From Citrus sinensis (Eukaryota; Streptophyta; Magnoliopsida; Sapindales; Rutaceae): a stretch of DNA of 64,000 bases. A program made the translations under genes and the position numbers. Below are positions 3,501-27,554 of the stretch, piece after piece. The notes beneath the pieces were generated by a model. It ran no database searches, was not told the origin of the DNA, and saw only the letters and a list, made by a program, of their open reading frames with translations. Location of the stretch: positions 2,644,001 through 2,708,000 of the forward strand of contig NC_068556.1 in NCBI RefSeq assembly GCF_022201045.2, given 5' to 3'. Each line of letters starts with the position of its first letter. The first letter of the stretch is position 1.

Positions 3501-6500
3501 ATTGTGTCATTGTTAAATACATTATATCTATTTCTTTCCATTGATTCTTTTAGATTTTGTTTGGTTGTAGCCTTGTGCTATTTATTGTTTCATTCCTTGT
3601 ACATTTATCTTCTCTGTGCTTTTTTAATCTTTCAGGAGACAAAATTTACTAGCAGTAAATTAGACCTTGCAATCTCGAGTTTTTCCTTTCATATTGTAGT
3701 TGTGGAAAATTTTTCTAGATTTGTTTTATTTGGTTCTTGATTTGAATTAACTGCAATGAACTTTTCTGTATTAGGGTTTGCAGAGGATATCTAAGCAGGG
3801 TACCTCCCTGATGGGTGTCCCCAAGCAGTCTGCTCGTGTAAAAGTCGGCTGGTGTTCTTCTAATTTAGACAAGCAAAGAAATTTGCCTTCATTTGTGCTT
3901 TCTTTTACTGCTGCACCTTCATTCTTTATCAGTTTGCATCTGAAGCTGTTAATGGAGCATAGTGGGGCTGGTATGAGCTTGCATGGCCAAGAATCAACAG
4001 AGTGTGCAGGATCTGGCTGTTTGATAGCTGATGAAAGCACTTATGAAAATAATGTGCCACAATGTACTCTTGAATTGAATATGTCTAAATCACTGGATTA
4101 CAATATGATGGTTATGTCAAAGGATGCTGCATCTCATGAGTGCTCGCCTGCTGCCACATCGAAGTTAGAGGCAGTTAGTTCCTCTGTCTGTGGTGATGAA
4201 AGTTGGACAAGGTCTCCACAGATATGCAGAAATAGTAGCACTAATGTTGCTGGAACTTCTGCTAGTTCCCAGGAACCTGAACAAATTGGAAATGAGGCCA
4301 TTGTTCCGTTGCAGAAGTTGCAATATCATGATCCCAAGTCAGAACAATGTGTTTTATTGCCAAGGCCATCTTCAGGTGACTGTGATAAGACAGATACAGC
4401 TTACAATTCTCCCTTGAATAGTATAAGGGTTGAAATTCCAACATTTGACCAATTTGAAAAACATGATCGGGAGTATCATAGTGTTCAGTGCACTACTGAT
4501 CTGAATTGGAACATGAACGGTGGCATTGTCCCCAGCCTAAACCCTACTGCCCCTAGAAGTACAGGGCATCGAAATAGAAGTAGTTCATCATTCGGATACC
4601 TTGCTCATGGATGGTCTGTTGAAAAGGCTGATGTTGCCCATAGTAGTTTTGGTAGTGCACCTAAGAAACCACGTACTCAGGTCTCATATTCTTTGCCCTT
4701 TGGAGGTTATTATAGTCCAAAGAATAGAGTTAATCACCAGAAAGGGCTTCCCCACATGAGGATCAGGAGGGCAAATGAGAAGAGATTGTCAGATGTTTCT
4801 AGAGTTTCAAAAAAAAACTTAGAGTTGTTACCTTGTGATGCAAATGTGCTAATTGTGCATGGTGATAAAGGTTGGAGAGAATGTGGGGCACAGATTGCAT
4901 TAGAGCTTTTTGAACACAATGAGTGGAAGCTTGCAGTTAAACTTTCAGGGACTACAAGATTTTCATACAAGGCACATCAGTTCCTGCAGCCTGGGTCAAC
5001 AAATCGTTATACACATGCTATGATGTGGAAAGGAGGAAAGGATTGGATATTGGAGTTTCCTGATAGGAGCCAGTGGGCTCTTTTTAAGGAGATGCATGAA
5101 GAGTGCTATAATCGTAACATTCGTGCTGCTTCAGTTAAAAATATCCCAATCCCTGGGGTTTGCTTGATAGAGGAATTTGATGATAATGTTACAGAAGTAG
5201 CATTTGTTCGTAGTTCTTCCAAGTATTTTCGACAGGTTGAAACAGATGTTGAGATGGCTTTGGATCCATCGCGTGTCTTATATGACATGGATAGTGATGA
5301 TGAGCAGTGGCTTTTAAAAATCCGCAGTTCTTCAGAAGCTGATGACTGTGGCTTGTCGGAGATTTCTGAGGAGATCTTTGAGAAGATAATTGACATTTTT
5401 GAGAAAGCTGCATATTCACAGCAGAGGGATCAGTTCACATCTAATGAAATAGAAGAGCTTATGGCTGGAGTTGGTTCCATGGAGGCAATTAAAGTGATCT
5501 ATGAGCATTGGCGGCAGAAGAGGCTGAAGAAGGGAATGCCTTTAATCAGACATCTCCAGGTAACTTCAGAGTTAATTGCTTGTTTAATCTGTCATGAGTT
5601 TATTGCTTGTGGATCAGTGGTTACATCTTTTTCACCATTGTATGATATGATCTATTTGAGATTTCATGTTATGTCTTTGGTTTTGTTGGAATGATTCTAG
5701 GAGTAGGAAGTGCAATTTATTCAATAGGAGAAATGTGACACACTGAGAGGACATGTGAAGATATTAGAGTAAAGCAAATTTGGTATTTTGATCCTGTTTA
5801 ATCAGGAAAAGAGGGGGGGGGGGGGGGGGGGGGGGAAAAGGCAAACTAGATAATTTTGGGGGATTCCTATTCTGTCAACTAATACAAAATAATTTGTGAG
5901 GTCTAAATACTGCTTAAACCTAGAAGAAAATTGTGGAAGTTATTTATCTTTGGGAGAGTTGTACCATTTTTAGAATAGAAAGAAAATCTGGATGATGCAG
6001 GTTAAACTGGGTAGTTACCATGAAAGATTTGAATAACATTAAAGAAATATTTTTTTAATGAATGAATGGCAAATCTTTTGAATTGATACGTTTATCAGCT
6101 GACTGGGAAGTAAAATTGCCATGCAAGTGGCCATTTTTCATAGCAGTAATATGACAAATACGCTATTTATCTCCAAATGCTGTGAAAAAGCCTTAAAAAT
6201 TAACTTATCTGTGTTATCATGTTATGACATTCATTGTGATGCCCCCTAAGTTCGGAGAGTACAGTGGTTATCCTTTTTGCGACATAAGTCCTAGTACTAG
6301 TATGATTGTCATTTTTGGGATGGATGAAGGCATCTGAGCGACCAAGATTTATTTATTGAACAGGCTTTGAGTGACAAAAAGGCTTAAAATGATTGTTCTT
6401 TTATATTCTATTAAACTAATATTTCTCTTTTAAAACTTTAGAGTACCATTGGGTCATTTGGTGATGTTGTTTTGTTTTATCTGGCACTCATTTTAGATTG

Positions 6501-24364: not shown

Positions 24365-25547
24365 GGTCAAAATGGCCCCGGCGGTCGAGGTTTTTAATTA
24401 AATATGTCTTAAAAGTAGTGTATTTAGTTAAATATACCTCATGTTTGAAAATTATCTAAGTATGTCTTTTTATGTGGTACATTGTCTAAAATATCCCTAA
24501 AGAAAAATATAAAACACACACACAACTCACAACACTCTTTGCTTCTCACGTATTTATCATCTATACAAAAACTCACACCACACTCAAAATCACTCACAAA
24601 CAACTAATGCACTGAGTTTGTTTGCAGCTGGGTGTATTATTCATCCCATGAATAAGGTATTTGAAACTTTTTTTATTTTATTTTGGGCTATCTATTCAAT
24701 TTGTTGACATTATATTATTTTTAGGGTTTTGTTTGGTTTGTGATAAACACTAAAGCAACTCATATTTTCATTACATTTGCATCATATGACTGTTATTTGA
24801 TGGATTTTATAACTACATTCGTTAAAATCTGAAGTTGTTGTCAAATTTTTTTCTGCACCCGACATACACGACAGCAGTCGTGTATGTATGTATTTACACG
24901 ACTGTAGTCGTGAAAATGTGTAAAAAATTTCAATTATTATGACACCTTATTATTCTATTGGTTCAAAAAATATATATTTTTCACTATATATATCCTTTTA
25001 CTATTACTAGACTATAGTCGTGTGTGTTAATAAGTTACATGACTACTAACGTGTACGTATAAACTTACATACTATAATTGTTAATAAGTTACACGACTAC
25101 TATGAACCGTATATACTTGTTATTTTTTGTTGTTTTAATTTTTTTAATATCTTTCATATTTAGTGATAAATTTTTACCTTTTTGTTTCGCAGATGAATAA
25201 ACATGTTTGTGTGACTTTCTAAGAACAAGTATTGAAGGGAGGCGACCAGAGACTTATAAAATATGGACCGAGTGTTTGGGTTGAATATGCCAAAAAATTA
25301 TGATGAATGTTAAATAACTTCTATTATATTACGACTTATTTACGATTTCAATAACTATTGGATTTGTGTTATTTGATAGGCAATCGAACTATAGTTAGTT
25401 TCGTTTATTTGAAGTTTGATATGTTTAAAATCTATATTGATTGTGTCATCAATATAATGAATGATTGAAAAGAATTTTTATTCTGTGCACATACCCGAGT
25501 ACAATCGTGTATTTTGGCTGTTACAAAACTGGTCATGTTTATTTCTA

Positions 25548-26010
25548 AATACTCGACTACAGTTGTGTATCTATGCAAATACTCGATTATCACAAAGAGC
25601 TTGTCATATTTATTTCTAAATACTCGACCATAGTCGTGTATCTGTGCAAATACTCGACTGCAGTCAAGTATTTTGTCATAGAGAGCTTGTTATTTTTATT
25701 TGTAAATACCCGACTACAGTCGTGTATCTGTGCAAATACCCAACTGCAGTCGAGTATTTTATCACAGAGCTTATTATGTTTATTTCCAAATACCCGACCG
25801 CAGTCGTGTATCTGTGTAAATACTCGACTGCAGTCGAGTATTTTGTCACAGTTTATTATGTTTATTTCTAAATACCCGACCACAGTCGTGTATCTGTGCA
25901 AATACCCGACTGCAGTCGAGTATTTTGTCACAAAGCGTATTATGTTTATTTCCAAATACCCGACCGCAGTCGTGTATCTGTGCAAATACCCGACTGCAGT
26001 CATGTATTCT
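25548..26010. repeat. Tandem array of about six 82-86 bp units, each with palindromic arms
   Basis: Each unit starts AAATAC[T/C]CGAC, carries CAGTCGTGTATCTGTG, then AAATAC[T/C]CGACTGCAGTCG and a spacer around TTATGTTTATTTC. The second half is an inverted repeat centred on the PstI-type core CTGCAG; in the fourth unit (about 25818-25843) the palindrome is perfect over 26 bases. Looser copies of the CGAC-nn-AGTCG core occur earlier, at about 24865-24910 and 25010-25100. Both strands stay open across much of the array because of this symmetry; the apparent reading frames are not regarded as genes. Confidence 0.85.
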
Positions 26011-26176
26011 CTTACAGTGTATTCATTGTGTATATATTGTGCAAACTATCTTATCTATCATTAATATAAATAACAAAGAAATAAAATATATTAATGTTGT
26101 CAATAGTTTTTAATGACATCAAATATCAATAACATCCTCATTACAACTATTATATCTCATAATCCAAAAAATGACA

Positions 26177-26793
26177 CTACAAAGTTTTTTTCCATGACCT
26201 ATGCCCAAATAATTTTACAACCAAGGCTTGTCGAAATTGTGTAACATGATTTTGTTGGCAGTATGAATTGACATCAAGTCCATGGGCTATGACCTTCAAG
26301 TACCGCAACAAAAATGCTCCACAGTCACCACTAAAAAAATTCATATAAATCAATTGTTAAAAATCATCATTCTTATTATTATGTTCAAAACACATTATAT
26401 ATATAGTACATACCCTGATTTTTGTTGCGGGATGTCACGCACTCGCACGATGGGCCAAGGAATTTTCGAAATAACCTCACTACAGTCTGGATGTGTTTCG
26501 TGATATGCTATCTTCTGAAGTACTAGAGGTATCATGTCTGCAACATGCAGCAATTGTCTCACCAAAACTGAATCCTTTGTTAAGTCTATCATGGGGTCAT
26601 AAATGGAAATCTTGCCCCCAAGTATATCGACCACACCGAGAACCCAATGATCATTCATGAATATTGGCAAATACACCTACGAAATACAGACAATATTTTT
26701 AACAAGTAACAGCAAATATATCTACGAAATGCGGTAACTGTTTTTATCTACTTGCAGTTGATTTATTAATAGTGTACTATCAATAGTTTTATG
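26177..26793 (-). CDS. C-terminal part of a Ulp1/SENP-type (C48) cysteine protease, transposon-borne
   Basis: Three exons on the minus strand join in phase: 26752-26793, 26414-26676 and 26177-26330, giving 152 residues before a TAG stop. The C48 active site is present in order: His in NDHWVLGVV, Asp in ISIYDPM, Gln in DIPQQKSGG, and the nucleophile in GGDCGAFLLRYL. Proteases of this family cleave SUMO or similar modifiers from proteins. The upstream part of a normal Ulp1 gene is absent or unrecognisable, and no start codon was assigned, so this is a fragment. It lies inside a Mutator-like element and was probably mobilised with it. The splice sites are consensus and the frame has no stop, which suggests recent or maintained function, or recent insertion. 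Confidence 0.72.
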
Positions 26794-27554
26794 CTGAAAC
26801 AAATAGCAAATTGTTAATAAATTAGAATTGCAAAATAAAGGTTCTACAACAAATAATAGAGAAAACCCAAATTGTAGCATAATGAATGCATACACAGCTG
26901 AAGAAAATTGATATATAATTCCCATGGATGAAGTTCAACTACAAACAATAAGTAAAATTATATAAAGATCTAATGCATAAACTAGTGTAGCCATAACCGA
27001 AAATTCATAAGGATAATATTTAATTAGGAACTCCCACAACCATTATTAAAGAGCTATGAATTCACTCTCTTCAATTTCAAATTCACAAGTTAAATAAGCT
27101 TCATTACATTACCAGCAAGAAAGATTATTAGTAAATAAGCAAGATAATGACCAAAATCATGTGGGTAATTTGTTTTTTAAAACCCTAATGCATATAACCC
27201 TAACAATTATGCACCATAAATTCTCTTTATAAAGTAAAAAATAAGTGTAAATGTGGTTAATGACCTTTAGTTCGGTGAATTTTCAGCCTTTAATTCGGTG
27301 ATTTTGTAGCCTTTAATGTGGTGGATGAACTTGCAGCAGCAGGAGCATGAACTTGCAGCAGCAGGACAGGCGTTGTGTATGGTAGCTCGTGAAGGCAGAT
27401 TTTGAAATTTGAAGAATTAAATTAGGGTAATTTTGTAATTGCACATTGAAAAAGGTATATGAAAGAAATTTTAAATTATGGGGGTGTAGTTGGATAAATA
27501 CCTAACCTTTAGGTATAGCGGGGACAAATCCCTGCCGGCGGTCTGGCTTTTCCC

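What the first reader, a model, noticed from the sequence alone, without database searches (positions are those of the whole stretch)
24365..27554. Transposon-borne Ulp1 protease fragment with a complete catalytic set
Three minus-strand exons at 26752-26793, 26414-26676 and 26177-26330 splice in phase into 152 residues. These carry His (NDHW), Asp (IYDP), Gln (IPQQ) and Cys (GDCG) of the C48 family and end at a clean stop. The upstream half and any transposase are missing. A deletion derivative that keeps an open, spliceable protease core is unusual: it is either very young or still expressed. Ulp1 genes in plant MULEs are established; this truncated architecture and its coupling to a hairpin array are the new part.
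Basis: partly seen in the sequence, partly recalled or inferred. Interest (0 to 1): 0.72.

Follow-up and report, generated by a model that had tools for sequence, protein, structure and literature searches.

The report
Defective jumping gene with protease leftover
This is a shortened plant jumping gene that cannot move on its own and carries a decaying stump of a protease gene; its more telling part is a repeated palindrome that may be the docking site of the family's own anti-silencing protein.

Summary
The C48 exons at 26414-26676 and 26177-26330 (minus strand) are real; the third "exon" (26752-26793) spans a deletion junction at 26758/26761. The element is 24387-27534, with a perfect 9-bp target-site duplication. 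It is a deletion derivative of a multi-copy Mutator-like (MULE) family. Long relatives carry a MURA transposase and, on the opposite strand, DUF1985 and C48 exons. DUF1985 is the domain of VANC anti-silencing proteins of VANDAL elements; VANCs with Ulp1 are called KIU. The window copy lost the transposase and the upstream protease half in two deletions found in 12 and 6 of 38 loci, so it belongs to an amplified non-autonomous subfamily. There C48 shows no purifying selection (5 synonymous, 21 nonsynonymous changes; 3 of 6 copies broken), and about the first half of the protease domain is missing. The "hairpin array" is a family-wide tandem array of the palindrome CGACTGCAGTCG, fully kept in 17 of 19 shortened copies. 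I read it as a candidate VANC target. Within the family the palindrome is no better conserved than its linkers, so this rests on position, family specificity and published parallels; binding is untested. A new member of a known kind.

The parts
24378..24386 (.). left target-site duplication CCGGCGGTC
   Evidence: on the + strand this 9-mer occurs only at 24378 and 27535 in the window; 14 of 20 copies with both ends located have a perfect 9-bp duplication at the same offset, 3 more have 8 of 9, 3 have no clean one
24387..27534 (+). whole element, non-autonomous MULE deletion derivative, 3148 bp
   Evidence: ends shared with relatives; end-anchored TIR only 6 of 20 bases
24869..24910 (.). subterminal palindrome pair (sites at 24869 and 24899, 30 bp apart)
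   Evidence: a like pair in sister locus L039
25082..25095 (.). deletion junction 1: transposase gene removed
   Evidence: long copies hold the MURA frame between the sequences flanking this point; junction found in 12 of 38 loci
25554..26008 (.). tandem array of the palindrome CGACTGCAGTCG in pairs 30 bp apart, period about 84 bp
   Evidence: 25596-26008 folds as RNA at z = -12.1 (+) and -22.1 (-)
26177..26330 (-). last C48 exon (GDCG catalytic Cys, stop)
26414..26676 (-). second-last C48 exon (His, Asp, Gln); the first exon with C48 homology left here
   Evidence: junction found in 6 of 38 loci
27535..27543 (.). right target-site duplication CCGGCGGTC

Best explanation
The feature is a non-autonomous member of a degenerate-TIR MULE family of the VANDAL/KIU kind. 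Shown: long relatives encode MURA on one strand and DUF1985 and C48 exons on the other. Shown: two internal deletions removed MURA and the 5' part of the C48 gene, and copies with these junctions sit at other places with 9-bp duplications. Inferred: DUF1985 and C48 form one VANC-like gene; the left deletion came first; the element moves by MURA made by long copies. Inferred, and the weakest step: the palindrome array is where the family's VANC-like protein binds to lift DNA methylation, so defective copies borrow both proteins. Inferred from the missing half and the loss of selection: the remaining C48 exons are a passenger next to the array and make no working protease.
For: Ends and target duplications in many copies. 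MURA domains in L020: PF10551 E = 1.1e-20, DBD_Tnp_Mut, SWIM; DUF1985 in L009 upstream of C48, E = 3.2e-20. The four strongest of 150 scored DUF1985 hits lie at or beside L020, L041, L019 and L021. Junctions found in 12 and 6 of 38 loci. C48 in the deletion subfamily 5 syn: 21 nonsyn, against 19: 10 in six other copies, Fisher p = 0.0009. Palindrome: 12 of 12 window sites lie in the element; a 23-mer of it has 60 + 55 genome hits, some sites counted on both strands, against 0 for the reversed control. The array is fully covered in 17 of 19 shortened copies, C48 exon 2 in 7 of 19. DUF1985 as a VANC domain and VANC targets as tandem motif repeats: PMC5735166 (passages).
Against: No binding, methylation, expression or mobility data. 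The window copy has neither DUF1985 nor MURA. Published VANC21 and VANC6 motifs are absent from it (0 and 0). Between repeat consensus units the palindrome cores are no better conserved than the linkers in 15 of 16 loci compared with the window (cores 21-23 of 24, linkers 37-40 of 42). Only L039 differs (22 of 24 against 26 of 42), and L039 was found through the motif, so it is not independent. Two of 19 shortened copies, L024 and L027, have largely lost the array yet have terminal duplications of 8/9 and 9/9. Shortened copies share ancestry, so retention is not 17 independent events, and exon 3, next to the array, is retained just as often (17 of 19). The six low-change copies were grouped after the counts were seen; four others show omega about 1.
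Confidence: 0.7

Rival explanations
1. The truncated gene is still expressed as a chimeric protein: the deletion joined a right-end open frame, which contains ATG codons, to the C48 exons by a new splice, giving a mini-protease or a decoy.
For: The junction is found in 6 loci, and 3 of 6 C48 frames (window, L003, L037) are free of stops and extra bases.
Against: 5 syn: 21 nonsyn in the subfamily; stops in L004 and L031 and an extra base in L002. About the first half of the protease domain is missing: residue 3 aligns with residue 108 of a 226-residue SENP1 construct. Unspliced, an in-frame stop precedes exon 2. In L009 the right-end frame ends without C48.
Confidence: 0.07
2. The array acts as a hairpin RNA source: transcripts through it fold into long double strands that yield small RNAs and silence the family in trans, as Muk killer does for MuDR (Muk recalled).
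For: Strong RNA folding of both strands, z = -12.1 and -22.1, 0 of 100 shuffles as good. In L020 and L009 the array lies between the converging MURA and C48 frames. VANC targets can also be RdDM targets (PMC10398659 passages).
Against: Any array of palindromes folds well, so folding is not independent evidence. A self-silencing array would not by itself favour spread (inference).
Confidence: 0.22
3. The array is a set of internal binding sites for the MURA transposase, needed for transposition rather than for anti-silencing.
For: Two palindromes lie in the left subterminal region, and the array is kept in 17 of 19 shortened copies.
Against: No site was found near the right end of the window copy: sites run from 24869 to 26002, with the end at 27534; long copies have some further right, e.g. 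L009 at 6008-6332 of 7898. L024 and L027 have 8/9 and 9/9 terminal duplications with little array, though the array may have been lost after insertion.
Confidence: 0.22

Closest known systems
KIU / KAONASHI MULEs of Arabidopsis (non-TIR MULEs with a ULP domain in reverse orientation to mudrA)
   Same: C48 opposite to MURA, degenerate TIRs, multi-copy (PMC2528002 passages; PMC13317346 passages)
   Different: the window copy is a deletion derivative with only the last two C48 exons; different genome
VANDAL21/VANDAL6 with VANC anti-silencing proteins
   Same: DUF1985 gene with the transposase; degenerate TIRs; target motifs as tandem repeats in noncoding DNA (PMC5735166 passages; PMC10398659 passages)
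   Different: the repeated motif here is CGACTGCAGTCG; YAGTATTAY and AGTTGTCC/AGTTGTAC are absent from the window element; the gene here also has C48 exons
Grapevine, melon and rice ULP-bearing MULEs
   Same: ULP sequence with the transposase, in either orientation (PMC2528002 passages)
   Different: no palindrome array mentioned in the passages read
CitMule of Citrus clementina
   Same: MULE with 9-bp target duplications, about 7 kb (PMC4334395 passages)
   Different: Jittery-like with a FAR1 domain; this family has DBD_Tnp_Mut and DUF1985/C48

Membership tests
Mutator-like elements (MULE) | 9-bp target-site duplication | tested here: met
   perfect in the window copy and in 14 of 20 copies with both ends located
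Mutator-like elements (MULE) | MURA transposase | tested here: met
   in relatives such as L020; no match in the window copy (L001), which is therefore non-autonomous
TIR-MULE | long terminal inverted repeats | tested here: not met
   6 of 20 bases agree when anchored at the ends; a gapped inverted similarity from base 24 on is weak but reached by only 2 of 300 shuffles, so a degenerate TIR is possible
VANDAL/KIU-type MULE with VANC-like gene | DUF1985 and Ulp1/C48 opposite to MURA | tested here: met
   in L009, and by neighbourhood at L019, L020 and L021; in the relatives, not in the window copy; that DUF1985 and C48 are one gene is inferred, no transcript seen
VANDAL/KIU-type MULE with VANC-like gene | tandem repeats of a short motif in noncoding DNA | tested here: met
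VANDAL/KIU-type MULE with VANC-like gene | VANC protein binds the motif and removes DNA methylation | not testable with these tools
   needs ChIP, EMSA or bisulfite data
Active Ulp1/SENP C48 protease | complete catalytic domain with His, Asp, Gln, Cys | tested here: not met
   residues present, but profile positions 1-85 of 217 are not matched, nor about the first 107 residues of the 226-residue SENP1 construct
Active Ulp1/SENP C48 protease | purifying selection | tested here: not met
   omega about 1.5, 5 syn: 21 nonsyn in the 6 copies of the deletion subfamily; few changes, so weak selection is not excluded

The most novel reading that the evidence does not exclude
The palindrome pair, two CGACTGCAGTCG sites 30 bp apart, is the DNA target of a DUF1985-C48 (KIU-type) anti-silencing protein, and the deletion subfamily spreads as a parasite of both MURA and that protein, keeping little more than ends and target array. 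(Probability lowered from my draft's 0.45 because one search showed that the core is not better conserved than the linkers within the family.)
Probability: 0.36. Interest if true: 0.55.

Novelty: new member of a known kind. Interest (0 to 1): 0.33.

Why it matters
It turns a claim about a protease fragment into a testable case of transposon anti-silencing outside Arabidopsis. A defined palindrome, a candidate protein from the same family, and natural deletion copies with and without the array would let target recognition, and hitch-hiking by defective copies, be tested directly.

Tried and rejected
Rejected: the three-exon gene model (junction inside exon 1). Rejected: the ends 24365/27554. 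Rejected: published VANC21 and VANC6 motifs as the array motif (0 hits in the element). Rejected after checking: my first reading as strong evidence for constraint on the palindrome core. Its units were picked by matching the core, and L039 was found through the motif. With repeat units defined by Tandem Repeats Finder instead, 16 loci were compared with the window (L038 gave no unit of period 78-92); cores match at 21-23 of 24, spacers at 16-18 of 18, linkers at 37-40 of 42, save L039 with 26 of 42. Considered and not run: structure prediction of the spliced fragment, since a spliced protein is not read letter for letter from one stretch of DNA. Led nowhere: the term CiMULE2 (0 papers); the EMBO J paper on VANC co-evolution is not held, so its content is known only through passages of PMC13317346 and PMC10398659. 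One other C48 locus (L042) shows no long repeat array by Tandem Repeats Finder; one locus only. Of the ten further motif loci seen among the 100 places listed (15 of 115 hits not listed), three were fetched (L039-L041), all three matching this family or a sister of it; seven were not read. Species: Citrus is my guess from genome and contig sizes, recalled and untested.

Full report
OBSERVATION. The three minus-strand stretches join into 152 residues and a stop, with GT and AG at each splice site. Pfam finds Peptidase_C48 at E = 2.8e-23, only over profile positions 86-207 of 217 and only from residue 15 of the product on. So two of the three proposed exons carry the protease signal.

ELEMENT ENDS. 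On the plus strand the 9-mer CCGGCGGTC occurs exactly twice in the 64-kb window, at 24378 and 27535, and brackets 24387-27534. Both ends could be placed in 20 copies from the same genome. Of these, 14 have a perfect 9-bp duplication at the same offset, 3 have 8 of 9 (L011, L024, L036), and 3 (L004, L009, L014) have no clean one. Anchored at the ends, the termini agree in 6 of 20 bases; a gapped inverted similarity from base 24 on is reached by 2 of 300 shuffles, so a degenerate TIR is possible.

WHAT THE PARENT ELEMENT LOOKS LIKE. L009 (7.9 kb) and other long copies share the ends. L020 has a 755-aa open frame on the element's plus strand with the MULE transposase domain (PF10551, 1.1e-20), DBD_Tnp_Mut and SWIM; in L009 the same region is split into several open pieces. 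On the opposite strand lie C48 exons, and in L009 and L024 a DUF1985 domain (3.2e-20 and 2.2e-14), in L009 upstream of the C48 exons on the same strand. A genome-wide DUF1985 search (332 candidates, 150 scored) puts its four best hits at or beside L020, L041, L019 and L021, without stops. That DUF1985 and C48 are one gene is inferred. DUF1985 is marked as a VANC domain in a figure legend of PMC5735166 (passage). VANC proteins bind short motifs that form tandem repeats in noncoding parts of VANDAL elements and cause loss of DNA methylation (passages of PMC5735166, and PMC10398659). A 2026 review says that VANC genes with an Ulp1 domain are the KIUs and act likewise on KIU-carrying elements (passages of PMC13317346). 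The primary paper was not held.

HOW THE WINDOW COPY AROSE. Two gaps separate it from L009: one at 25082-25095, where L009 has the transposase region, and one at 26758/26761, where L009 has about 2 kb with DUF1985 and an upstream C48-side exon. Its few bases on the protease side are intron in L009, the rest is right-end sequence. With 50-base probes and up to 8 mismatches, the first junction is found in 12 of 38 loci and the second in 6 of 38; the 38 include one unrelated C48 locus (L042) and two overlapping stretches (L010, L038). L034 has 12 mismatches to the first probe and was not counted; L031 has the second junction but no left end in the stretch matched. That these are deletions, and that the left one came first, is inferred.

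IS THE FRAGMENT STILL A GENE? In the six copies with the second junction (window, L002, L003, L004, L037, L031), changes from their consensus are 5 synonymous and 21 nonsynonymous, where about 2.7 nonsynonymous per synonymous is expected without selection (transitions weighted 3). L004 has two stops and GDCG changed to GECG; L031 has a stop; L002 has one extra base; the window copy, L003 and L037 are open. Six other copies (L009, L030, L020, L021, L019, L011) have 19 synonymous to 10 nonsynonymous distinct changes, omega about 0.19; Fisher p = 0.0009 against the subfamily. That group was formed; one of the six (L019) has a stop. The other four full-exon copies (L038, L015, L016, L014) have 15 to 40, omega about 1. 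Six further rows of the alignment lacked full exons and eight short matches had been dropped before it. Residue 3 of the two-exon product aligns with residue 108 of a 226-residue SENP1 construct, so about the first half of the domain is gone. Unspliced, an in-frame stop sits directly before the first real exon. I conclude that it is most likely a passenger.

THE ARRAY. With up to two mismatches all 12 sites of the window lie inside the element, against a mean of 0.4 in five base-shuffled windows. Genome-wide, a 23-mer has 60 plus 55 hits, some sites counted on both strands, and the reversed control none. Of the 100 places listed, 26 by my count lie in ten loci that the first DNA search had not brought. 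Three of the ten were read: L040 and L041 belong to the family, L039 is more diverged (left end about 83%, right end 93% identity to L009; last C48 exon 71% in protein). In 19 copies shorter than L009 with both ends placed, the left end is covered in 19, the array fully in 17, C48 exon 3 in 17, C48 exon 2 fully in 7. Exceptions for the array are L024 and L027. L017 shows no right-end coverage, though a weaker match is seen. Published VANC21 and VANC6 motifs do not occur in the element.

A CHECK THAT WENT AGAINST ME. In one search the cores agreed at 24 of 24 consensus positions between the family (139 distinct units) and L039 (11 units), the spacer at 16 of 18 and the flanks at 10 of 18. But those units were selected by core match, and L039 was found through the motif. 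With units taken from Tandem Repeats Finder, 15 of 16 loci show cores (21-23 of 24) no better conserved than linkers (37-40 of 42), and only L039 shows less conserved linkers (26 of 42; core 22 of 24). Constraint on the palindrome is therefore not shown.

MECHANISM. Shown: a non-autonomous MULE subfamily with shared junctions, and a family-specific array kept in most shortened copies. Inferred: transposition by MURA supplied in trans, and anti-silencing by the family's DUF1985-C48 protein through the array. Rivals are a small-RNA-producing hairpin (folding z = -12.1 and -22.1) and transposase-binding sites.

NOVELTY. ULP-bearing MULEs in both orientations are known from Arabidopsis, melon, rice and grapevine (PMC2528002 passages), and KIU anti-silencing with motif recognition is described. 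In the searches made here I saw no report of this palindrome array or family; only listings and the passages named were read, so this is weak evidence of absence. Confidence was lowered slightly from my draft (0.72 to 0.70) and the novel case from 0.45 to 0.36 because.

Noticed in passing
G000:C4:19391872-19401900 (outside the window): Seven DUF1985 hits in one direction at an exact spacing of 1,607 bp, about 4.4 kb from a palindrome-motif hit at C4:19387448: looks like a tandem amplification of a VANC-like gene segment.
   Followed up: no
whole genome G000: DUF1985 (332 candidates, 150 scored) and C48 (533 candidates, 150 scored) are both abundant; in three pairs compared by eye they lie 2-3 kb apart on one strand, e.g. 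C4:24454687 and C4:24457260.
   Followed up: no
L009:7000-7508: Further, more diverged repeats of hairpin-like sequence on the 5' side of the DUF1985 exon in the long copy.
   Followed up: partly
L010:712-5680: One family copy inserted inside the left end of another, with a 9-bp duplication: nested insertion.
   Followed up: no
L042:2-3202: A different C48 locus: a 217-residue single C48-bearing frame opposite to frames that look like a MULE transposase (my reading of the translation, no family search run), without a long repeat array.
   Followed up: partly
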